A DNA stretch of 64,000 bases from Amanita rubescens (lineage: Eukaryota > Basidiomycota > Agaricomycetes > Agaricales > Amanitaceae): NCBI GenBank assembly GCA_015039365.1, contig WION01000010.1, positions 496,001-560,000 of the forward strand, given 5' to 3'. The notes below the pieces were generated by a model. It ran no database searches, had not been told where the DNA came from, and saw only the letters and a list, made by a program, of their open reading frames with translations. The position numbers and the translations under genes are program-made. Shown one piece after another: positions 7,400 through 64,000 of the stretch (its first letter is position 1; every line of letters begins with the position of its first letter).

Positions 7400-9304
7400 A
7401 TGTCAACTACCGGTAATACCAACTCGACTCTGTCGGATTTCTCACATGCGGTTGAGAAATTAGAGTCAGACGGCTCGAACTGGGTTATGTTCCAATCTAG
7501 GTTCTTAATCGCTGTTCGCCAGAAGAAGGTTTACACACAGTTTGATGGGTCTAACCCTAAACCAAAAGCTTCGGCGTCTGTGACGACTGAGGATAGCACC
7601 GTGGACCCTACCACCGAACAGGTCAAGAAATTGCAGACCTGGCAGGACAAGGAAGATTTGGCCATGTATCTTCTGACGCAGAAACTCCCGGACTCGATTT
7701 TTGCAAAGTACATGCAAAAAGCAACTGTAGCTGAAATGTGGTCAGCTATTGTCATTGAGTTTATGCGAAAAAGCATACTCATGCGTTCGAGCTTGCACTC
7801 GGAGTTTATGGCCATGCGTTACGAGAGAGGCGCCAATCTTCATTCTGAATTTGACTGCATTAGGATGAAGTATGAACTGCTGGTCAATGCAGGAATTACG
7901 GTCAGCAAGGATGACTACAGGACCCTTGTAATCAATTTCCTACCTTCCGAGCTCTCCACTTTCATTGCGCAATTATCAGCTCAGATGAAAATGATGAATA
8001 TCTGTCAAGGGGTTTCATCAAGCGACACATCTTCAACTTTGGACGCGAAGTCAAGTGATCCTGATGCCGAGGAATTGATGAGTTTTGCTCTTGAAGAGTG
8101 GGATCATCGAGAATCCTACAAGAAGGCGAATAACAAATCCTCCGGGAAGCAGAAGGAAACTTCTGATGCTACTGCTATGGCGACGGTTTTGAGTGAGAAA
8201 CCAGGGGCTAGCCCAGGAGGTGACAAGGGTGGTAGACACAAAAGGCGGTATGGTAAAGTGGAGTGCTGGAACTGTGGGAGTAAAGGACATATGCGGAATA
8301 ATTGTCCTAACAAAAAGGACAATAAAGACAAGGATGGTTCGGGCAAAAACGAACCAAAGAAGGATGGTGGTTCTTCATCCAGTTCCAAGGATTCCAAGTC
8401 ATCTGGAAAGCAAGCGAATATGGGCGCTGCTACAATCGAGGAAGTTTCTGGCACGTGGGCCATCATTGAAGATGACTTATATGATTATGATGGTATCTGC
8501 GAAATCGATGAACCCATGCTATCAGATGATGCACATGATCTGTACGATTATGGTGCTATATCTGAAATCGATGAGAACAGACCTGTTGACGACGTGTCAG
8601 GGTTGACAGCGTGCATTATGGATGATGACAGAGTCCATATCCCCGAGAAGGTCCATGCGTTCACTACTTCTGTGTCGAACGGCGGCGATTGCATCTGGGA
8701 TCTGTATGATTCTGGAGCCAGTCACCATATGTCTCCATGCCAAGAGGAATTCTTGAACTTCAAAGAAATTGCGCCAAAAGCTCTTACGGCGGCAAATAAA
8801 CAGTTATTCACGGCATCTGGTTTGGGAGATATAGTCATATCAGTTCTGAATGGGGATGAGGTGACAAAAATACCACTGGTTTCTATTGGAAAAGTGGATG
8901 ATGCCGGGCATTACACATTATTTGGGAATGGTCAATGTGTCGTTATGGACAAAGATAAGACCGTAATTGGCATAATCGAGAAGACCAATGGAGTCTATAA
9001 GACCGAACATACCCCATCAGTAACAGTCGCATTGGCGAATAACAGAACGGGTAACAAACTCACCCTGATGGAGTTACACGAACGTATGGGACACATAGCC
9101 ACGTCTACCTTGAAACTTCTTGTGAAGAAGGGCACTATTGATGGGTTTGAAGTCATTGATTTCACCGAGAAACAGTGTCCATACTGTGAACTTGCAAAAC
9201 CTAAAGTGAAGTCAGTACCAACGGTACAAGAAGGGAGCACAAAACGGCATTTGGTGATGAGATTCATTCAGATCTCTGGGGTCCTGTGCAAAAAGAAACT
9301 CTAG
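7400..9304 (+). pseudogene. Copia gag, protease and pre-integrase domain
   Basis: First good ATG is at 7400 (MSTTGNTNSTLSDF). The open frame also extends upstream into the LTR but that part is probably untranslated. Gag polyprotein with UBN2-like region (LTQKLPDSIFAKYMQK, YERGANLHSEFD), CCHC knuckle CWNCGSKGHMRNNC near residue 290, an acidic linker with two similar DLYDY blocks, protease motif D-S-G-A-S-H-H-M, and the pre-integrase zinc domain (LHERMGHIA ... CPYCELAK). The frame is lost at about 9240-9252 by a one-base change, so the last 17 residues are out of frame. Confidence 0.9.
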
Positions 9305-22792: not shown

Positions 22793-25700
22793 TCATGGTG
22801 GTTCGGGGGGAAGGTCGTCGAACGTGAAGGCGGTGGGGTTTTCTTTGAGGAATTGTTTGAGTTTTTTGCTGTTCTTTTTATCAGTGCGAATTTTCTGTAT
22901 CGAGGCAAAGTGAGAGGTGTACTTGCCGCAAGTGGATAGAATGTGCGACCTTGAGTGGAGCACGGGGTCTGGGCAGTGAGGGCATTGTGTGGACTGATCT
23001 GGGAAGAAGCGCTCTCGGTATTCTCCTGTTGGTGCGTGGTTTGTTAAGGCACGCGTTAGGCGAGCCATCAAGGCTGGGTCGTTCTCTGCCATCTCCCGCA
23101 TCACGAAACGTCGAGTGGCGTGGCCCAGGGAGGGTTGAATGGGCTTCTTTTTGCGTCTAATCAGTAGCCAGCCATGTCCTGTATATTGTGGGCTGCGATA
23201 TCTTGCCTTCCACCAGCGTTGAGCACAATGTTTGGCCATCTGTATGAAGTGTTCGTGCAGGATGCCTGGTGCCGTGGATTCGTCTTGTTCCCTGCTTGCT
23301 AATCTGTCGGCGCGTTCGTTTCCTGCAATTCCTACGTGAGATGGGCACCATGAGATTCGTAGGGTGTGGTCAGGTGAACGACTTAGCCAGTCCCGTGCTA
23401 ATATGCATATTTTGAGGGACGTGATTTGGCTTGAGTGTGTATTTGTGTCGAAAAGGGCATTGATGGCTGCTTTGTTGTCTGTGACAATGGTTGCGCATTT
23501 TATGTCTGTGCGCTGGATAAGCCATGTGAGCGCGATTTCGCAGGCAGCAAGTTCCGCATCAAAAGAAGAAGCAGCAGCGCACCACTCCCTTTTTTCCCCG
23601 ATCCATTGTCCTTCACTCCAGCATACACATGCTGCGGTGCCCCGTTGGTAAAAAAGATGACTTGTGATTTCATTTCGTCAGACATCCACCGTTTGTATGA
23701 TGTTAGCCATGTCTTGAAGGAGTCACTGTTCTTCTTCGGAGCATCCATGTTGAGGAAGGAGATCCTTGTCAGGTAAGTGTCAAGGACCCTGTCCCCGGGT
23801 TTTGCTTCGTTGTGATATGGTTCGAAGTATTCTTGGATTTGGTCTGTTTTGAGCCGGATTATGGGGTTGTCATCAGGTAAGTTACGGCGTCGACGCCGTG
23901 GGTGGATGTGACAGTAACGGGCTGGGACCGGGTCATAGTGGAATATTTGTCTGAGAAGATGATTTTCAGGGAGGGTCATAATACGCGCACTGTACTTAGC
24001 GAGGCAGATGTTGAACCATAGGGCAAGTGGTGGGATGCCGGAAAGGACTTCTAGGGCTCCATGTGGAGTGGTGTGGAAAGCGCCGGTGACCCATCTGGTT
24101 GCGAATGATTGTACTCTTTCCATTCGTGTAAGGCACTTTTTCGCGCCATCCCCAAAGGGGGCGTACCATAACGCTAGACCATATGCAAGGATCGGGAGTG
24201 CGCATGCTTTGTAGACGACCGCACGTTCTTCCGGCCCGAGTCCGCTGTGCGAGTTTCCGAGCATCTGGCATGCTCGCATCGTGCTAAAGGCTTTGTTAGT
24301 ATATATTTTCACATGGGAGGTAAAGTTGAGGCGGGAATCAAAGTAGAAGCCCAGATAGCGCCATAAGTCTGAGGGTGGAACTGTCCACGTCCTTTCTTCC
24401 CACTCGAAAGTGAGGGGGGGTTGTTGTTCCTCTTTAAACCTTCGGGTTGGGCTGCTGAGGTCGAATGCGAAGAAGTGTTTGAGTTCGAGCTTTGTGTGCT
24501 CGGAGGTGAGGCCGAAGTAGGAAAGGAAGGTGAGGAGGGTCTTGTATATTGTGGCGAGGAAATCTACATTTGCTTGCATGGACTCTGAGGAGGTGACCAA
24601 GGCACCGTCATCAACGAATGTTAGTATGTTGACGCTTTTGTCCGTTCCCCACTGGAGAGCAAGTGTCAGTAAAGCTGCGAGATAAAGGGCAGAGAGGATT
24701 GGGGAGAGGCCATCTCCTTGAGGGACTCCGATGCTGGCGTCTATGGGTGGGGATGTGTCTGAGCCCCAGCAATATCGTGTGGTGCAGTTTGAGAAGAAGG
24801 CGACCATGAAGTTAGCGATTTTCCTGTTGAAGCCAAATTTGGTCAGTATTGTGAACATTACACGGTGATTGAGTGAGGGGAAGAACTGAGCGATGTCGAG
24901 GGCGAGAATGGTCGTGTGTTGTCCCCGTTCACGAGCTTTGACTATTGTATCCATAAGTATGAGGGCAACGTCAGTGGTGGCGTGTTTTTGTATGCCGCCG
25001 AACTGGCCTGGGTGGAGGAGGTTGTGTTTGTTTGCGTCATATTGAAGCCGAGCTGCCAGGACCCTCATGAGGAGCTTGCCAATCGTGTTGAGGAGGGCGA
25101 TAGGGCGGTATGCTTTGGGGGTTGAGTAATTGTTTTTCTTCGGCTTGGGGATGATGACGCTTTCTGCTTCTTTGAGCTGTGTCGGCCAAAAACTTTCATC
25201 CATGATCCTGTTGTAAAGTTTCATTAGTGCTTTTGTCACATCGTAGGATGAGAGCACTCTTTTGAGTAGCCGCCACGTAATGTGGTCGTTTCCCGGGGCA
25301 GAGGAGTTTGATGTGGATTGTAGGGCAGTGCGGATTTCGTGGACTGCGATGGGGGGGAAATCGTGTTCTGGGTGTGTAGGCAGCGCGTTGATGAAGTCCC
25401 AGTTAATTTCTGAGGCGGCGTTGGTGTTGAACTGCTTGTCAAAAACCCTCCAGAGGTGGTCCGTGCTGGTGACCGTTTCACCGTTGTCTTTAATCGTCGA
25501 AATTGGGGGGGCTTTGCACGCTTTGGTCCATTGAACGCCTTCCCAGGGAGCTTTGACGCTTGTCATAGTTTTCAGCTTTTTCCCAAAGAAAGACTTCTGT
25601 GCCGCCTTGACAGCTTTCTGGAAGGCTTTTCGTGCTGCAGGGGAGCATTCTTCTTGGAGGCGGGTTTTGGCTGCTTCGCAGTCTTTGTCCCACCACATGG

Positions 25701-26652
25701 AGGGGTTAGATCCTAGTTTTGGGCATCGTGAGTTTTGGCGCCAGGCACGATCGACAGCCCTGTAAATCTCGTCAAAAACGTTAGCAAGGCTGGAGGAGGA
25801 GTTTTCCGCTCCAATGAGGATGGCTAGTTTGATGGTATTGACAAAGTTGTCTTCCTGTTCGCTTCCCCCTTTTATGTATGGGGAGCCCCGCCAAGTCTTA
25901 TTGACACCGAGGTCGAGCTTGAGGAGGGAGTGGTCACTCTGTCCCCTGTCTTCTATGCAGTTTTGGTAGGTCCATTTGTTGTGGCTCAGCAGGGACGTGT
26001 GGGCGAAGACGAGGTCGAGGACCGAGGAGCGGTTTTGTTTTGGGTTATGCCACGTTGGTTGCCCGTCTTCGTTGACTAAGTGGTGGTCAGTGAGCATGAG
26101 GGTGTTCAGCAGCTCGATCGCTGTGTCGTCCGCTTCTGTACATTGTGGGTCCCATTCGGGGGAGTGGAGGTTGAAATCGCCCTGTATGACGGCCACATTT
26201 CGGAGGAAGGGGAGGGTCGCAATAAGAGAGTTGACAGCTTCATTGCGGGTGGGCGGACGGTTATAGAGGCAAACGAAGGTGGCACTTGATTGGTCAGCAT
26301 TTCTGGTAAGGCGAAGGGTCAGTACATTTGGCGATGGGACCTCGAAGGGGTCCATGAAAAGTGAGAAAACGGGGAGGATACGCTTATTAACATAGATGGC
26401 AACCTGGGATTCTGGGAAGGTAGAGCGTTTGTCTACGCAAGCCCACTGGGGGTGGGACGCTGAGCCCATGAGTGGGTCGCCTTCCTCGTTGGTTGAGGAA
26501 GCGAGGTTTCGGACTTTGTAGACCGGGAGTTCCTGGATAAACAAAAGGTCAGTGTTTGCCTGCAAGGTTTCAAGGAGGGAATGGAGATGGGGCCTGGTTT
26601 TGCGGACGTTTTGGAAGGCAAATTTTAGTTCTGAGACGAAGCCTATCGCCAT
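22793..26652 (-). pseudogene. LINE pol: endonuclease, RT, RNase H, zinc finger
   Basis: ATG at 26652 overlaps the stop of the previous ORF as TAATG. APE-type endonuclease: E41 (FIQELP), GDFN at 158-161, D213, and SDH at 239-241. RT: LDIAQFF (D586), GVPQGDGLSP, FVDDG (D681, D682). The frame changes at the C-run 23640-23643, just inside RNase H. Beyond it another frame gives EWCAAASSFDAELAACEI, then VTDNKAAI, HVGIAGNERADRLA, and the C-terminal zinc finger CPHCPDPVLHSRSHILSTC, ending at 22793. RNase H begins FFTNG where FTDG is usual, so the first catalytic Asp looks mutated (GAC to AAC). Full product would be about 1280 residues, a Tad-clade layout. Confidence 0.92.
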
Positions 26653-27971
26653 TACATTGATGGGTTTGGGGGGTTGGGGGCGCCGTGCTTGATCTCAGAG
26701 GCAACGCGGTTGCAAGCTGCCAGTGATCGTCGTTCTCGGGCGAGGTTTTGCAGCTCTCTGATTTTGCCATCATCGTAGTGTGCCGCATAGAAGTTGCATG
26801 CGGAACTGGTTGCCTCGTGGTTGTCGCCGCAGTTTATACATGTGGGGGGGCACGGTTGGCCCGATTTGCAGGAGGTGCATTGAGCAGGGTGGGAGACGGT
26901 GGCGTGGTTGCCGCTGCATCGTGCGCAGGTCGCCTGTTGGGATCGGCACCAGTAGGCAGGGTGGCCCCACCTCATACATGTGGTGCACTGTTTCGCACTG
27001 TTTTTGATGATCCAGGGGAGGCATCGGCGAGGGCCGCAGGAGAAGTGTATGGTCGTATTAAGGAGTTTTTTGCCCACAGATCCTTGGGAGTCGTCTGCTA
27101 CGCTGACGAGGACGACTGCAGTGAGGCCCTTTTTCTGTCCTCTAGGGGTAATGAACTTGGGTTGCTCAACGAATTGGACGTCAGCCCAAGCTGGGTGGGA
27201 CCTGATGTCATTTTCAAGGTCATACTCATCTGTCTCTGAGCCGTCAAAGTTTACCGTGGGGACCGCCGTGAATTTCAGGAGGGTGGTAGGCGGGCGGTTG
27301 GTGATGGTTACCGTGTCGTCGTCAAGGGAGTCGGCTGCTTTCTTCAGGAGCCCTATCATTGCTTCATCAAGCAGACTGAAACATTGGATGATGAGTGTGC
27401 CACGCATGGACCATTTGGCGGAGACGATTGGGTTTATCTTGGTGCATTCTAGTTCTTGGTTGGAGGCTGTGGTGTTGACAGCCCTGATTATGGATTCCAT
27501 GAGGAGGTTGCCAGTCTGAGCCCTGAGGGTATCGGTTTTGGCGTTCTTTCCTAGTGAGACATGGAGCTCGGTGCTTCGGGTGCCACGTATGGTGGGGCGG
27601 TGAGCAGGTTTGCCCCCCGACGGGCGCTTGTTCTGGACGACAGTCCATGGGGCTTCAGAATCTATGCAGGCAATGTTAGCTTATGATCTAAGGGATGAAT
27701 TGGGAGGGGGCTTAGCCGAGGGCTGGGGGCCCCTGTGTCTGCGTCACTCTTCTATACCCCTGTTTGTTTCGGTGTAGGCCGCGCAGATGTCTGCGTCAAT
27801 GTCCGCAAGGGTGTGGGCCATTCGTTCTTTGGCTTCTTTAGTGGGACCATTTGTGAGGGAAGAGGCAGGGGGTTTGTGCTTCCTGTGCTGTTGGTTTGTG
27901 TTGACTTGGTTTCCTGCGGCAGGTGTGGGTTTCAGGATCGAGTGCGCTACATTTGCCATTTTGAAGGACAT
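26652..27971 (-). pseudogene. LINE ORF with CCHC zinc fingers (gag-like)
   Basis: One frame from ATG 27971 (MSFKMANVAHSILK) to TAA at 26652-26654, 440 codons, interrupted by TGA at 27744 and a TAA near 27690; both are explained by C-to-T changes of CGA and CAA. The central part resembles LINE nucleic-acid-binding domains (HFSCGPRRCLPWIIKN). Zinc fingers: CTTCMRWGHPAYWC, CARCSGNHATVSHPAQC, then C-x2-C and CINCGDNHEATSSAC. Probably the RNA-binding component of the RNP. It lies 13 nt after the coiled-coil ORF. Confidence 0.85.
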
Positions 27972-27984
27972 TTTGACGAGGGCG

Positions 27985-29637
27985 TCAATATCTGCACCGG
28001 GGTTGTTTTGTACATTGTATTTGAGGAGCTGGGAGATACATAGTCTCTGGAGGGGGGGTCCCCCACATCACGATAACGCCATCCTGTTCCGCAACAGTGT
28101 TGATTGGCCGACGCCTACGTGTGGGGTCGTTTGTCGGAGGCGGGGGAGCTGCTGGTCTCTTCGGCCGGTACCCGAGGGTGAGGGGGGACGGCGGAGTGGT
28201 GGTGGTGTCGATGGCCATGGCTGCTGCTGCTGCTGCATTGTCAGCAGGTTCCTCTTTGGTCTGTGGAGGCGGGTTTACGCCCTCGCCGTTTTCCCGCTCC
28301 CTTAGGCGTAGCATCAATTCCTGGTTCGCCGTTCGAAGGATTTCCATTTCCTGGCCTTGGCGCCTGTGGGACTCTATTTCTTTCTCTAGTTCGTTTGATA
28401 ACATGTTGTATTCATTCTGTAGCTGGGTGAGTTGTGTGTGAAGGTTCATGGAGGATTTGTCCGCTTCGTTGGCCTTCGCATTTGCCTGGGAGATGGATTT
28501 GGCGAGGTTGTTTGCGTGTTTTTGTTCTCTCTCAAGGTCTAGTCTAAGGTGCCTGTTGTGTTCTTCTATCTGTTTTATGCGAGAGTTAGCATCACGGAGA
28601 TCTGACTTAGTAGAGACAAAGGACTTAGCCATGGATTCGGCCCACGTGTAGACTTCCTTGAGGCTTTGGATTTCCGAGGCTTGTTCCCGGAAGCGTTCAT
28701 CTGATTTCTTGATGGATAGGTCGCCTCCGAGGAGTGTCGGGGAGAAGGTCTCAGCAATGTAGCTGACGACGTCTACGATTTGGTCTCTAGACCCACGGGT
28801 CCTAAAAGGGGAGATTATGTCAATGATAAGGTAACCGAGAGAGAAAACGTTTGGAGATTCTGAGAGGATGTCTCGGACCGTTCGTCGGACCGTGTCGATT
28901 AGCTTGGGGATGTTCAGGTGGGCGGTTGCGTCAGTTCGTAGCGGAGCGGCTGCATTGGTCAGCGCTTTGTGTTCAGCGTTGATATCTACTGGCGCATCGC
29001 AGTTGTTCCCGGTGGGAGGGGGGGTTGGGGCGCCCTGTGTCTCGTGAGCTTTCTGGATGCACATCTTGAGCGTATTGAGGGGGGTGGTGTCCACCACCGG
29101 TTCCGATCCAGGGGTTTTGCAGGGCAGCTTTTCCAGCTGGCGAATTGTGTTGGCCAAAGGGGAGGGGAGTAGGCCCAAGGGGGTGAAGCGATTTGCGCGG
29201 CTGCTTTTACTCTTGCTCTTATGCTTTGGGCGGGGCGTCCTGGGGTCGTATTCGCGTTCTTGGGATTGTAAGGGCGAAACTGTTTCGATCATGTCGTCAT
29301 CGTCCGGGGAGTTACCCCAGAACTTCCCTTGGGGGGGGGGAGGACCTCTGTATGGTGAGCCCAGTAGTAGCTGGTCTTCTGCATTTTTGGCCGCGTCCGT
29401 GTAGTGCGGGCTTACGTCATAGCTGATGCTGGAGTCGCGGAGTTTGGCCGGGTCAAGCAGTTGTTGAGTTGTCGGGTAAAGTAGAGAGGGCAGCGGGGTG
29501 GGGGTCCGCGTTGGGCCTTTGGCTACGGAGTCGATGTAGGAGAGCGCCGGGGTGGGGGACCTGTCGTTGGGAGGAGTTTTATTAGCGTGGTGGTGGTACG
29601 AGGTGGGGTGGGAGGGGGGGCTCCCTCGGTCTGCCAT
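27985..29637 (-). CDS. LINE ORF1 coiled-coil protein
   Basis: 550 residues from ATG 29637. N-terminal half is proline- and serine-rich, with a basic stretch (RPKHKSKSKSSRANRF, about 135-150) that could be a nuclear signal. The segment from about 310 to 450 is a long heptad-like coiled coil (RIKQIEEHNRHLRLDLEREQ, LQNEYNMLSNELEKEIE), suited to multimerisation as in LINE ORF1 proteins. C-terminus has poly-Ala and an Arg cluster (PTRRRRPIN). No zinc finger; that function is in the next ORF. The frame is intact. I know of no named family for it. Confidence 0.8.
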   Translation of the reverse strand: MADRGSPPSHPTSYHHHANKTPPNDRSPTPALSYIDSVAKGPTRTPTPLPSLLYPTTQQLLDPAKLRDSSISYDVSPHYTDAAKNAEDQLLLGSPYRGPPPPQGKFWGNSPDDDDMIETVSPLQSQEREYDPRTPRPKHKSKSKSSRANRFTPLGLLPSPLANTIRQLEKLPCKTPGSEPVVDTTPLNTLKMCIQKAHETQGAPTPPPTGNNCDAPVDINAEHKALTNAAAPLRTDATAHLNIPKLIDTVRRTVRDILSESPNVFSLGYLIIDIISPFRTRGSRDQIVDVVSYIAETFSPTLLGGDLSIKKSDERFREQASEIQSLKEVYTWAESMAKSFVSTKSDLRDANSRIKQIEEHNRHLRLDLEREQKHANNLAKSISQANAKANEADKSSMNLHTQLTQLQNEYNMLSNELEKEIESHRRQGQEMEILRTANQELMLRLRERENGEGVNPPPQTKEEPADNAAAAAAMAIDTTTTPPSPLTLGYRPKRPAAPPPPTNDPTRRRRPINTVAEQDGVIVMWGTPPPETMYLPAPQIQCTKQPRCRY

Positions 29638-29816
29638 CCTGGCAACACGAGGAAAAGGAAGGGGGGGTTAAAAAGGTGAAAGCCGGACTGAGGGGGTTTT
29701 CAGGGGCTCTCAGGGTGTGTTGCTTGTAGAGCAGGGTTTTGGATTCTGATTTTCGGTGTGTTTCCCAATCCGGAAGGAGGTGGTAAAAGGAAAAGAGCCG
29801 ATGCACCAAAGAGATC

Positions 29817-61636: not shown

Positions 61637-62040
61637 CTATAAGGATAACAGGGGACTCTGGACACACTGGCTGGGTGTTTTTACTTGAGTAGAGTGGTTC
61701 AAAGCCTTCTTGCCCTTGTTAAGGGCAAGCTGAGTAGCGAGCTTATCATTGTTGGGAGGAAAGTCAGACCTGATACAAAAAACGAGCATGAGCAAGGAAA
61801 ACCATATATGTACAAAGGATAAAACATACTCATCCAAATCATGGTGCTGGTCTTTACCCTTCAAGACGGAGGTGATGGGTTTTATGCTCGCCTTAGGAGT
61901 TGTGGGCCACTGATCATCACCTAGAGGTTCATTGTAAGGAGGCTACAAGAGCATCCTGGAGCCCATATGAATATTCATGGATATGGAGATTCAGAGGATC
62001 TCCAAGCCTGAAGACCAGGGAGTTGTGGAACAACTCCCAT
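61637..62040 (-). pseudogene. Minus-strand coding remnant with a 60-bp intron
   Basis: Encodes LGDPLNLHIHEYSYGLQDAL, then in another frame EPLGDDQWPTTPKASIKPIT and SVLKGKDQHHDLDE. An intron 61770-61829 (GTATGT...TATCAG) joins it to SDFPPNNDKLATQLALNKGK, KALNHSTQ, after which a donor GTAAAA follows. Family not recognised. Possibly the gag side of GypsyC. It contains the first hairpins of the palindrome-rich zone. Confidence 0.45.
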
Positions 62041-63898
62041 AGATATATTGTATATAGATCAAGTCACGTGTGACTTTATATTCACGCGTCGACACCTTAC
62101 ATAATCAGCCCACTATTACTTCGTCATACGCACACACTAGCACGGCTCACCCAATACATTTGGTCCTGTGCACTGTGCGTTCGAGTATATACAAGCTATC
62201 AACCTCTATCAACCTATCCACTTTACACTTTTTTGCACATCCACTGTTGTTGTGCAGCCGTGCCATTGTCAACTTTCATTTTTGGAGTTGAAAATCATTG
62301 GTATTCTCGAAGACGAGTACACTGGTCAATCTACAAGTCCCAGAAGAGTCTACCAACACCCAAACACGAATCCCGGGCTTAGTCAATGCCCAAAGAGCTC
62401 CGTGACACGAAGCTCAACTCACCTGGAGCACTTCGTGGCTCCAGACACCTGCCATACCCGAATCCGCTCTGGAGACCGTCCGTCGGATTCAGGCTGAGCC
62501 GATTGATAGGCTCAGCATACGAACACACACGGACACCCGGGAAGTCCATCCCGGACATCAACTCAACTCAACACGTCGAAAAACCTTCGACGAAAGTGAA
62601 GACCGAGGCTCCCACTGCCTCACGCTCATCACGACGCGCAACGAGCGTCAGTACCTCTGAGTTAATAACTCACACGGACGAGCATACGTTCGGCTCGTCC
62701 CACAACTCAAGCACTCAGTCAGTTTCACGCGACGCTACACGGTTTAAGGCCACTCATGCTCCTCGAGTGAAACAGGAGGTTCTGAGAACCTCTAAGTCAC
62801 CTGGGGAAAGCACAGTGACTCCCGTTATCGAAACGTGTCGCCTTGGCCAGACTCCAACCCGGAGTCAACCTAAGTCTGATTGGCTGGAACCCCGTAAGCC
62901 CGTGAGTGAAACGCAACTAGCAACTCGCAGGGAAGATTCCTTGCGAGTACTTAACAATGCTAGTGGAACAGGAGACTCGACCCTTGAGTCTCGAAACACC
63001 CCGAGACGAGTTCAAGTGACTCGTACTCAAGAGCGTCCGAGCTCGTTGAAGCCGGACTCCACTCTCACATCTCGTGAGCTCCAGAGGAGTTCACCGAGAA
63101 AGTCCAACGAGCCAGCAATAGCTCGTGGCTTAGATTCACGAAGGAAGCTTCCTTCGGAATCATCAAAGAAGACGGAATCGTCCGTCTCTCATACGCCGTC
63201 TCGGAAATCCAATACGCGTGATAAGCGTATACCACTGCCTGTGTTGGAGCCCTCCGTACTTGTCCGGAAGCTTCCGGACAAAAGCACTGGAGTTGTCGGA
63301 TCTTCGTCAAAGTCTCGAGTTGTTGCTGCCGTCGCGCGTTGTGCTCCTGGCCCCCGTGTTGGATCCAAATTGAAGTTTCAAATTGGAAATAAGACAGTTA
63401 GCACGAAGGAACGAGAGAGCGCAGCCGATTACGCACCTTTGGCCGAGACAGCCCCCTCGCTGTCGGAATCTTTGCCCGTCTCCTCTATACAGGCCAACCC
63501 TCCTGTTCTGCTCAAAGATGAGCTAATCCTCGCGCCTTCGTGGCTTCCTAAACGATGCGAACCTCGTGTTGTCAACACTGCAAAGTCAATAGTGAGTAAG
63601 ATTACTCACCATACTGCTGAAGCTCGTCGAAGAGCTCTAAGCCAAACCGGAAACCCGTGGTTTGGTGATCCACCTGCGGAACGAGAGTCAGTACATGCAA
63701 TACAAGCCGTAAAAGCAAAGGAAATTTCACCTTTGCTTCCCGACACCCCGACAGAACATCCACCACGCTCGTCTGATATTCTTGCACTTATGAACGCGCC
63801 CGTTCATATTCCTTCATTTTCGAGTGAAATGGGGGAGAAACGGCAGGATTCTTATGCCGTTATCAATATACAGAGATATAGTGAGGAAGTTTCCTCAC
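61709..63898. repeat. Chain of about 40 short inverted repeats
   Basis: Nearly continuous perfect or near-perfect inverted repeats with arms of 5-14 bp and loops of 0-17 nt. Examples: 61709-61729, 62018-62038, 62493-62516, 62676-62700, 62776-62792, 62923-62948, 63133-63161 (14-bp arms with one bulge), 63260-63281 (22-bp palindrome with arm TTGTCCGGAAG), 63592-63609, 63713-63738, 63789-63808, 63881-63898. Each hairpin has a different sequence, so this is not a dispersed repeat family. Most lie inside the plus-strand reading frame. Confidence 0.85.
62041..62385 (+). other. Leader region before the hairpin-rich frame
   Basis: Contains an AAGTCAC/GTGACTT hairpin (62061-62076), TCACGCGT also seen in the GypsyC LTR (58393-58400), and short frames without support. 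No TATA box in a usual place. It may be an LTR end or a promoter; undecided. Confidence 0.35.
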
Positions 63899-64000
63899 CA
63901 AAAGATCCCGCAACCGTCATGCTGTCTATTCCCGTACCTGCTGTTCACTCGTCACCACCCGCATCCCTTTGTCAATCCACGAGTATGCCCAAATCCGCTC
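62386..64000 (+). CDS. Long open frame, Ser/Thr/Arg-rich, runs off the window
   Basis: ATG at 62386 lies two codons after an in-frame TAG; from it 538 codons stay open to the window end, so the 3' end is missing. Product begins MPKELRDTKLNSPGALRGSR; it is rich in S, T, R, K and P with few hydrophobic stretches, suggesting a largely disordered protein. Segments include SRKSNTRDKRIPLPVLEPSV, GPRVGSKLKFQIGNKTV, HTAEARRRALSQTGNPWFGD and SSDILALMNAPVHIPSF. I recognise no domain. The coding sequence is made of consecutive hairpins. Upstream 62041-62385 has no clear promoter element. Could be a host gene or the first ORF of an unknown element. Confidence 0.7.
   Translation, partial: MPKELRDTKLNSPGALRGSRHLPYPNPLWRPSVGFRLSRLIGSAYEHTRTPGKSIPDINSTQHVEKPSTKVKTEAPTASRSSRRATSVSTSELITHTDEHTFGSSHNSSTQSVSRDATRFKATHAPRVKQEVLRTSKSPGESTVTPVIETCRLGQTPTRSQPKSDWLEPRKPVSETQLATRREDSLRVLNNASGTGDSTLESRNTPRRVQVTRTQERPSSLKPDSTLTSRELQRSSPRKSNEPAIARGLDSRRKLPSESSKKTESSVSHTPSRKSNTRDKRIPLPVLEPSVLVRKLPDKSTGVVGSSSKSRVVAAVARCAPGPRVGSKLKFQIGNKTVSTKERESAADYAPLAETAPSLSESLPVSSIQANPPVLLKDELILAPSWLPKRCEPRVVNTAKSIVSKITHHTAEARRRALSQTGNPWFGDPPAERESVHAIQAVKAKEISPLLPDTPTEHPPRSSDILALMNAPVHIPSFSSEMGEKRQDSYAVINIQRYSEEVSSPKDPATVMLSIPVPAVHSSPPASLCQSTSMPKSA

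What the first reader, a model, noticed from the sequence alone, without database searches (positions are those of the whole stretch)
62386..64000. A protein-coding frame built almost entirely of consecutive hairpins
Reading the plus strand I find about 35 inverted repeats in 1.5 kb, each with its own sequence, at an average spacing near 45 nt. Arms of 7 bp or more with loops of 10 nt or less occur about 17 times (for example 62423-62444, 62493-62516, 62574-62592, 62658-62672, 62676-62700, 62776-62792, 63133-63161, 63170-63187, 63260-63281, 63592-63609, 63642-63665, 63713-63738, 63789-63808, 63839-63861, 63881-63898). My rough expectation for random sequence of equal base composition is about one. 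The frame nevertheless stays open for 538 codons. The transcript would fold as a string of small hairpins. I know of no described gene class with this design; possibilities are an RNA with packaging or decoy function that is also translated, or a mutational process that repairs quasi-palindromes to perfection.
Basis: partly seen in the sequence, partly recalled or inferred. Interest (0 to 1): 0.92.

Follow-up and report, generated by a model that had tools for sequence, protein, structure and literature searches.

The report
Mushroom retrotransposon selected to carry hairpins
The end of this window holds a young mobile element of a mushroom whose 8-kb message, in both its protein-coding part and its non-coding part, is kept full of short perfect hairpins by natural selection, a trait that several other LTR retrotransposons of this genome show more weakly and that we did not find described.

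Summary
In detail: 16 perfect inverted repeats (arm >=7, loop <=10) in 1.6 kb, against about 1 in dinucleotide, synonymous-codon and codon-order shuffles. It is not an isolated gene: the frame is the 5' part of a 1,547-codon ORF in an 8-kb LTR retrotransposon of Amanita rubescens with 295-bp LTRs (99.7% identical), TTCAT target duplication and polypurine tract, and no gag/pol match. Hairpins fill the ORF and the 2.5-kb 3' non-coding part. In ten lineage comparisons, substitutions hit ORF stems at 0.52x, destroyed 71 hairpins (136 expected) and created 52 (14 expected); the 3' part behaves alike; fake pairing rules and longer loops lie near 1x. So short Watson-Crick hairpins are selected. Weaker excess occurs in Ty3 elements with similar ends (possible helpers) and in copia, not in a LINE or a downstream non-element region. 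Most likely role, inferred only: many weak dispersed sites that condense or package the RNA. G-U pairs are tolerated no better than A-C, which does not fit simple sense-RNA stability. The mutational-repair idea is disfavoured, not excluded.

The parts
61928..61932 (+). target-site duplication TTCAT, upstream copy (the downstream copy follows the 3' LTR, outside the window)
61933..62227 (+). 5' LTR, 295 bp, TGTAAGG...CTTTACA; the 3' LTR (99.7% identical) lies at 69596-69890 in window numbering, outside the window
61984..62004 (+). hairpin in the LTR, arm 7, loop 7
62018..62038 (+). hairpin in the LTR, arm 9, loop 3
62228..62238 (+). CTTTTTTGCAC directly after the LTR, at the primer-binding-site position; the same word follows the LTR in both subfamilies and in the Ty3 elements L029 and L030
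   Evidence: primer not identified
62386..64000 (+). 5' part of the 1,547-codon ORF (continues to 67026 in window numbering, then TGA); basic, low-complexity protein without a Pfam family above cut-off, with 10 RR-x-VV(N/S) motifs
62423..62444 (+). hairpin arm 7 loop 8
62493..62516 (+). hairpin arm 8 loop 8
62574..62592 (+). hairpin arm 7 loop 5
62658..62672 (+). hairpin arm 7 loop 1 (6 + 3 as RNA)
62676..62700 (+). hairpin arm 8 loop 9
62776..62792 (+). hairpin arm 8 loop 1 (7 + 3 as RNA)
62923..62948 (+). hairpin arm 7 loop 12
62972..62992 (+). hairpin arm 7 loop 7
63139..63156 (+). hairpin, palindrome of arm 9 (7 + 4-nt loop as RNA)
63170..63187 (+). hairpin arm 7 loop 4
63260..63281 (+). 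hairpin, palindrome of arm 11 (9 + 4-nt loop as RNA)
63592..63609 (+). hairpin arm 8 loop 2 (7 + 4 as RNA)
63642..63665 (+). hairpin arm 7 loop 10
63713..63738 (+). hairpin arm 9 loop 8
63789..63808 (+). hairpin arm 8 loop 4
63839..63861 (+). hairpin arm 7 loop 9
63881..63898 (+). hairpin arm 8 loop 2 (7 + 4 as RNA)

Best explanation
A non-autonomous LTR retrotransposon family of Amanita rubescens (identity, about 0.97). Its genomic RNA is under weak, diffuse but clear selection to hold about 60-100 short perfect Watson-Crick hairpins (stems 6-9 bp, loops most often 4-8 nt) along both the ORF and the 3' non-coding part; single hairpins turn over while the density stays (about 0.9). The mechanism I think most likely, inferred and not shown (about 0.4): the hairpins act together as many redundant, sequence-indifferent sites by which the RNA is condensed or bound by a capsid or nucleocapsid protein supplied by Ty3 helper elements with similar LTRs and leaders, so that the element competes for packaging. 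The element's own long basic disordered protein may assist.
For: Anatomy: LTRs, 5-bp duplications, polypurine tract; LTR pairs found in 13 of 19 fetched copies, 95.3-100% identical; no gag/pol family in the eight frames scanned. Selection: in 10 lineage comparisons in the ORF (2,699 substitutions) stems were hit 162 times vs 308.9 expected, loops 163 vs 133.4, hairpins gained 52 vs about 14, lost 71 vs about 136; 3' non-coding part, 6 and 4 comparisons: stems 0.65x and 0.53x, loops 1.03x and 1.03x, gains 6 vs 2.6 and 10 vs 3.7, losses 18 vs 31.7 and 10 vs 29.7. Three fake pairing rules give loss ratios 0.68-1.30 and gain ratios 0.45-1.36, on small counts; real pairing with loops 13-20 and 21-40 gives losses 0.80 and 0.83, gains 1.08 and 0.91. 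10-23 of about 60 hairpins are in register between subfamilies (0.20-0.34 on shifting; 20 pairs of copies). Helper link: LTR and leader of sub1 match the Ty3 element C224 best and those of sub2 match C156 best, and both carry excess hairpins (3.4-9.8x in 8 of 8 pieces). Excess is seen in the LTR elements examined, not in the LINE frames or the downstream region. Loops are A-rich and linkers A/C-rich; sense-strand folding z is lower than antisense in 7 of 7 hairpin or Ty3-helper elements.
Against: G-U is tolerated no better than A-C in stems (WC to G-U 33 vs 80 expected, to A-C 51 vs 99). Compensatory coupling is weak: 13 double WC-WC changes of 835 pairs (1-7 for shifted partners), while both sides changed 31 times, as for shifted partners (21-40). 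One-mismatch near-hairpins were completed only 21 times vs 14.5 expected. In one search stems beat flanks in 6 of 6 comparisons, but the bootstrap over hairpins excludes the flank value in only 2; one of two comparisons is not significant. Spacing is irregular and there is no common sequence. Between the two Ty3 elements only 3 of 48 hairpins are in register, none in RT and IN, and stem third positions are not clearly conserved (0.410 vs 0.366). The 50 nt before the 3' LTR do not support the helper pairing. Copia, which need not share a capsid with Ty3, also has the excess; the window's own Ty3 and copia elements fold no better than z -0.63. No binding, expression or packaging data.
Confidence: 0.5

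Rival explanations
1. RNA shield: many stems shorter than 10 bp keep sense and antisense transcripts of a multicopy element folded on themselves, so that they neither form long dsRNA nor offer open targets to small RNAs. Stems stay below lengths that dsRNA nucleases would cut.
For: Stems are capped: arm 6/7/8/9/10 counts 243/205/106/42/5 of 601 distinct hairpins. Constraint is nearly strand-symmetric: G-U no better than A-C, and both strands fold better than shuffles. The elements are multicopy.
Against: No small-RNA data. The LINE in the window lacks the excess, although it should face the same silencing.
Confidence: 0.25
2. The hairpins act in single-stranded cDNA during reverse transcription (compaction, pausing, strand transfer or protection), not in the RNA.
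For: The excess was found in LTR elements of two superfamilies, which reverse-transcribe in particles, and not in the LINE. G-U and A-C are equally disfavoured, as expected if pairing in DNA or in both strands counts.
Against: Sense-strand folding z is lower than antisense in 7 of 7 hairpin or helper elements (no significance test made), and loops are A-rich on the sense strand.
Confidence: 0.15
3. A mutational process (template switching by reverse transcriptase at quasi-palindromes) writes perfect hairpins; no function.
For: It would explain perfect Watson-Crick stems, no G-U preference and presence in several LTR elements. 21 of 52 gained hairpins involved 2-11 substitutions in the stem, which recombination or templating could both give.
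Against: Stems change less than flanks in copies not used to find them (transversions 53 of 1717 vs 381 of 6772 sites, p = 9e-6; transitions 123 vs 644, p = 0.002; sites taken as independent), whereas unbiased arm-to-arm copying should leave the per-site rate unchanged. 31 of 52 gains are single substitutions with no arm bias. Double changes are few. Arms of 10 bp are nearly absent (5 of 601).
Confidence: 0.1
4. Artefact of codon or amino-acid composition, or of repeated protein motifs.
For: The protein is low in complexity, with repeated motifs.
Against: Synonymous-codon shuffles that keep the protein exactly give 3.5 hairpins against 43 in the whole ORF; the non-coding 3' part is also rich (5.8 and 8.0 per kb vs 1.4 in window 1-61900) and also selected.
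Confidence: 0.01

Closest known systems
Non-autonomous LTR retrotransposons: LARD, TRIM, TR-GAG (mostly plant classes)
   Same: LTRs, target duplications, no pol, presumed mobilised in trans; LARDs are recalled to have conserved RNA structure in the internal domain (recalled; LARD/TRIM and TR-GAG papers seen only as search listings)
   Different: Here an open frame of 1,375-1,721 codons without gag homology fills most of the element, in a basidiomycete, and the whole RNA is filled with short perfect hairpins
Ty3/gypsy elements of the same genome (L029 = C224, L030 = C156)
   Same: Similar LTRs and leaders, same word after the LTR; excess hairpins in gag, pol and ORF3
   Different: They encode gag and pol; hairpin density is about half (2.4-5.2 per kb vs 6.8-9.3)
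Yeast Ty3 and Ty1 genomic RNA mapped by SHAPE
   Same: LTR-retroelement genomic RNA with structured regions through coding sequence (PMC11381356: abstract and the section on common features read)
   Different: Described there as a mosaic of stable and dynamic regions, up to 30% in stable low-SHAPE regions; no string of short perfect hairpins in what I read
Satellite tobacco mosaic virus RNA, proposed 30 stem-loops
   Same: A string of local stem-loops proposed to be bound by coat protein in succession (PMC3551766: passages read)
   Different: A small virus RNA of about 1 kb; that paper finds the free RNA not consistent with the 30-stem-loop model; no homology claimed

Membership tests
LTR retrotransposon | two direct LTRs with TG...CA ends | tested here: met
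   295 bp, 99.7% identical, TGTAAGG...TTTACA
LTR retrotransposon | short target-site duplication | tested here: met
   5 bp: TTCAT (C2), TGAAA (C7), ACCCC (C473), AAAAA (C252)
LTR retrotransposon | polypurine tract before the 3' LTR | tested here: met
   GTGGGGGAGAG
LTR retrotransposon | primer binding site matching a tRNA | tested here: inconclusive
   CTTTTTTGCAC is shared by the lineage but does not begin TGG; a primer was not sought among tRNAs
Autonomous Ty3/gypsy element | gag, protease, RT, RNase H, integrase | tested here: not met
   no Pfam match above cut-off in the ORFs of C2, C7, C121, C289 and four smaller frames; ORFs of other copies not scanned
LARD | long internal domain without coding capacity | tested here: not met
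   open frames of 1,375-1,721 codons at 17 loci, plus C157 with one in-frame TGA (capped list); dN/dS 0.56-0.70 in 8 pairs
TR-GAG | gag domain between LTRs | tested here: not met
   no gag family match in the frames scanned
Helper-dependent satellite element | helper with matching cis signals in the same genome | tested here: inconclusive
   LTR and leader of each subfamily best match one of the two Ty3 elements compared; the 50 nt before the 3' LTR do not; mobilisation not tested
RNA with dispersed packaging hairpins (STMV-like working) | many local stem-loops under selection | tested here: met
RNA with dispersed packaging hairpins (STMV-like working) | stem-loops bound by capsid protein | not testable with these tools
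   needs CLIP or binding assays

The most novel reading that the evidence does not exclude
LTR retrotransposons of this fungus, gypsy and copia alike, are under genome-wide selection for a quota of sequence-indifferent, strictly Watson-Crick 7-9-bp hairpins in their RNA or cDNA. This would be a kind of genome architecture not described before, in which a parasite element (this one) has become nearly a pure hairpin string with a disordered protein written over it.
Probability: 0.4. Interest if true: 0.9.

Novelty: new variant of a known kind. Interest (0 to 1): 0.76.

Why it matters
How LTR-retroelement RNA outside the 5' leader contributes to packaging and replication is poorly known (my knowledge, not from a call). 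Here selection has left a countable record: many individually dispensable hairpins that evolution keeps adding and guarding, in coding and non-coding sequence alike, in what looks like a natural parasite of the packaging system. The gain/loss test used here (lineage-specific substitutions re-dealt locally, with fake pairing rules as control) can be run on any multicopy retroelement, so the question whether retroelement or viral RNAs are selected for a hairpin quota becomes directly testable. The lack of G-U tolerance is a specific, unexpected clue to what reads the hairpins.

Tried and rejected
Biased first tests, not relied on. Comparing copies at hairpins found as perfect in one of them (also the helix tally) suggested strong stem conservation and covariation, but a hairpin that is perfect in copy A is by that fact unmutated in A. 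When hairpins were found in one subfamily and scored in the other, the third-codon-position effect was weaker: 0.789 vs 0.767 (bootstrap 0.754-0.829, not significant) and 0.802 vs 0.733 (bootstrap 0.773-0.846); double WC changes were 39 of 458 events vs 140 of 2139 with shifted partners. I therefore used designs free of this. In one search (shared hairpins, copies not used to find them) stems exceed 40-nt flanks in 6 of 6 comparisons, the hairpin bootstrap excluding the flank value in 2 of 6. One search shows examples with paired changes, but one search finds both-sides changes no more often than for shifted partners (31 vs 21-40; permutation mean 9.2, 0 of 5000 as high, shows only that changes cluster locally); the Watson-Crick kind is 13 vs 1-7.

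Strand test: G-U against A-C gave no sense-strand preference (one search had too few cases). Lower sense folding z and A-rich loops point to the sense strand; the two lines disagree and I leave that open. The outer flank of stems is poor in G-U (56 vs 158 A-C), the inner is not (93 vs 95); unexplained.

Ty3 helper hairpins are enriched in number, but only 3 of 48 hairpins of L029 (arm >=6, four pieces) are in register with L030, none in RT-RH and IN.

The idea that hairpins mark only this lineage was rejected: copia loci L033, L035, L036 (probably one family, so not independent) had 14, 17 and 14 vs about 2.6; three with a short ORF piece held had 2, 2 and 3 vs 0.27-0.48. In the survey of 35 held frames some unidentified frames also show 2-4x, but on 1-2 hairpins each.

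Gene-only search: no Pfam family above cut-off for the ORF. Literature: eight full-text searches, most with capped listings, listed no title or abstract start on such hairpins in LTR elements; subscription journals are not covered.
Full report
WHAT IS THERE. The frame at 62386 is open to the window's end. The dense inverted repeats are real: 16 perfect repeats (arm >=7, loop <=10) against means of 0.84-1.28 in three kinds of shuffle, 100 each, highest single shuffle 5. The folding energy of 62386-63380 has z = -9.9. In 64 kb there are 102 such repeats, 18 of them starting in the last 2 kb.

THE SURROUNDINGS. The window is G000:C2:496001-560000 of a 75.7-Mb genome. Database proteins on contigs of the same lengths as C7, C157, C252, C321 and C289 are named Amanita rubescens. 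The frame continues to 1,547 codons. A capped search with its first 538 codons gave 86 matches in the genome, of which 17 loci lie in open frames of 1,375-1,721 codons; C157 has a frame of 1,449 with one in-frame TGA in the match. Around the ORF lie direct repeats of 295 bp, 99.7% identical, beginning TGTAAGG and ending TTTACA, flanked by TTCAT on both sides, with GTGGGGGAGAG before the 3' copy. Other copies have other 5-bp duplications (TGAAA, ACCCC, AAAAA); LTR pairs were found in 13 of 19 fetched copies, 95.3-100% identical (the other six stretches did not hold both LTRs or are broken). This is an LTR retrotransposon with recent insertions. No gag or pol family was found in the eight frames scanned. 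Two subfamilies were seen among the copies compared: sub1 (C2, C7, C289, C321, C252) and sub2 (C473, C121, C137, C164, C629, C515), 31-39% identical in protein and 49-56% in DNA.

POSSIBLE HELPERS. The word CTTTTTTGCAC follows the LTR in both subfamilies; the 16-base pattern with the LTR end occurs exactly at 51 places in the genome. Of four further elements fetched, two are Ty3/gypsy: L029 (C224) has gag, protease, RT, RNase H and integrase matches; L030 (C156) has gag, RT and RNase H matches in the three pieces scanned, and its next piece aligns with the L029 integrase at 75% identity. LTR comparison is reciprocal: sub1 scores 48 with C224 (z 21-25) and 21 with C156; sub2 scores 72 with C156 (z 36-38) and 22 with C224; sub1 against sub2 scores 28. 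Leaders agree (20 each, against 15-18). The 50 nt before the 3' LTR do not: there sub1 is closest to sub2 and sub2 to L031. Only these two Ty3 elements and L031 were compared.

HAIRPIN ANATOMY. Across 11 copies there are 601 distinct hairpins of arm >=6 and loop 3-12; arms 6/7/8/9/10 count 243/205/106/42/5, commonest loops 4 and 6. The C2 element has 97 (62 with arm >=7), which cover 24% of its bases. Spacing is irregular. Arms are purine-rich on the 5' side, loops start with A in 120 of 283, and there is no common sequence. Of 236 distinct coding hairpins the three codon phases hold 106, 103 and 27; I read this as the protein limiting where hairpins can lie, without a control. Against synonymous-codon shuffles (60 each; arm >=7, loop 3-12) the ORFs of C2, C473 and C121 have 43, 34 and 43 hairpins against 3.5, 3.1 and 4.6; L031 and L032 17 each against 4.9 and 2.7; the pieces of L029 3.4-8.3x and of L030 5.7-9.8x; the window's Ty3 and copia frames, with one unassigned neighbour frame, 2.0-3.9x on 2-5 hairpins each; the LINE frames and a downstream region without an element match 0-1.7x. 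Copia loci L033, L035 and L036 have 14, 17 and 14 against about 2.6. A non-redundant survey of 35 held frames of 330 aa or more gives a similar picture, with some unidentified frames at 2-4x on 1-2 hairpins. The 3' non-coding parts of C2 and C473 have 5.8 and 8.0 per kb, window 1-61900 has 1.4.

IS IT SELECTION? Hairpin positions are partly conserved: between the subfamilies 10-23 of about 60 are in the same columns, against 0.20-0.34 on shifting (5 x 4 copies). My first conservation tests were biased by ascertainment (see Tried and rejected). In tests in which hairpins were found in other copies than those scored, stems changed less than flanks: transversions 53 of 1717 against 381 of 6772 sites (p = 9e-6), transitions 123 against 644 (p = 0.002), third codon positions likewise (p = 0.0009 and 0.04). 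Sites are not independent, so these p values are guides: with a bootstrap over hairpins the flank value is excluded in 2 of 6 comparisons, and without requiring the hairpin to be shared one of two comparisons was not significant.

The strongest test takes substitutions private to one copy (sister and outgroup agree) and re-deals them to random sites with the same base and codon position within 45 nt. Ten comparisons, 2,699 substitutions: hairpins lost 71 against 136 (simulations 122-151), gained 52 against 14 (9-22); stems hit 162 times against 309, loops 163 against 133. The comparisons share some branches, so they are not ten independent replicates, and blocks imported by recombination may contribute. 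With substitutions dealt over the whole ORF (11 comparisons) the totals are lost 74 vs 212 and gained 52 vs 22. In the 3' non-coding part six and four comparisons gave losses 18 vs 31.7 and 10 vs 29.7, gains 6 vs 2.6 and 10 vs 3.7, stems 0.65x and 0.53x, loops 1.03x in both. Controls: three fake pairing rules at arm >=7 have 20, 35 and 36 ancestral structures instead of 378, loss ratios 1.30, 0.68 and 1.12 and gain ratios 0.45, 1.36 and 0.64; the real rule with loops 13-20 and 21-40 gives losses 0.80 and 0.83 and gains 1.08 and 0.91; loops 3-8 give 0.45-0.47 and 3.2-4.2. So what is selected is a short-loop Watson-Crick hairpin.

WHAT READS IT? Watson-Crick pairs of ancestral hairpins turned into G-U 33 times (80 expected), A-C 51 (99), other mismatches 18 (65). 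G-U is not favoured, which is odd for a structure judged by sense-RNA stability alone. Near-hairpins with one mismatch were completed 21 times against 14.5 expected, a weak excess. On the other hand sense windows fold better relative to shuffles than antisense ones in 7 of 7 hairpin or helper elements (for C2 z -2.30 against -1.55), while the window's two Ty3 stretches, its copia, the LINE and the downstream region lie between -0.63 and +0.08 on the sense strand (the strand difference was not tested for significance). Paired changes within shared stems: 13 double Watson-Crick of 835 pairs (1-7 for shifted partners), with both sides changed 31 times, as often as for shifted partners. A selected but individually dispensable, quickly replaced set of hairpins fits this better than individually conserved structures.

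MECHANISM. Shown: LTR element, no pol found, selection for short hairpins in coding and non-coding parts, weaker hairpin excess in possible helpers and copia. Inferred: the function. I favour condensation or packaging by many weak sites because the trait was found in LTR elements and not in the LINE or the downstream region. The rival that stems below 10 bp keep transcripts out of long dsRNA explains the length cap and the strand symmetry better; a cDNA role explains the G-U result. The template-switch model is disfavoured by slow stems, single-base gains without arm bias (31 of 52; 16 in the 5' and 15 in the 3' arm) and few double changes; the 21 gains with 2-11 substitutions leave it some room.

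THE PROTEIN. dN/dS is 0.56-0.70 in eight pairs; stem constraint lowers dS, so protein constraint may be somewhat stronger than this ratio suggests. A repeated motif (R/K/Q)(R/Q/H)x2-5(V/I)(V/I)(N/S), defined by eye from these proteins, occurs 5-12 times per copy in 11 of 11 copies, against means of 0.23-0.43 in shuffled proteins. It may be a multivalent binding motif.

KNOWN OR NEW. The element is a new variant of a non-autonomous LTR retrotransposon. By the features tested it is not a LARD (long ORF) nor a TR-GAG (no gag match). I read the abstract and the section on common features of the Ty3 SHAPE paper (PMC11381356), which describes mosaic structure, and passages of a satellite tobacco mosaic virus paper (PMC3551766), where a model of 30 stem-loops bound by coat protein is cited and found inconsistent with the free RNA. 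Eight searches (listings mostly capped) listed nothing that describes this trait.

Noticed in passing
L029:680-9445 (C224); L030:621-7343 (C156): Gag-PR, RT-IN and a coiled-coil-like ORF3 of L029 lie in one continuous frame separated by two single stop codons, with a 100% identical LTR pair; L030 has four pieces in one frame separated by single stops. Readthrough or reinitiation may be used, or copies are decaying.
   Followed up: partly
L029:7385-9445, L030:7509-9359: A third ORF of 617-687 aa downstream of integrase, with weak coiled-coil-like matches and no Pfam family above cut-off.
   Followed up: no
window 23503-29667 (-): LINE-like element with endonuclease and RT (1,050 aa) and two further ORFs upstream, one coiled-coil-like; hairpin-poor, and the plus strand is strongly G-skewed there, so the coding strand is C-rich.
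   Followed up: partly
C121:63533 and C148:70517; C321 and C93; C164 and C640: Near-identical copies. C121/C148 share flanks (haplotypes or assembly duplicates); C321/C93 are 99.8% identical with different flanks, so separate insertions; C164/C640 are judged by equal scores only.
   Followed up: partly
L010:1692-6674 and L023:1-4983: A stretch of at least 4,983 bp downstream of the element is 99.9% identical, inverted, on contig C629: a segmental duplication or haplotig.
   Followed up: no
L032:7074-8358: Open frames of 428 codons on both strands over the same 1.28 kb in a hairpin-rich element.
   Followed up: no
last 50 nt before the 3' LTR in C2, C473, C331: A short hairpin of different sequence but at the same place lies just before the polypurine tract (AGATCA...TGATCT, GATTGCAATGCAATC, AGACTGCAGGGCAGTCT).
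   Followed up: no
L009:8683-8802 and 8815-8930: A tandem repeat of about 120 bp (82.5% identical) in the 3' non-coding part of the window's element.
   Followed up: no
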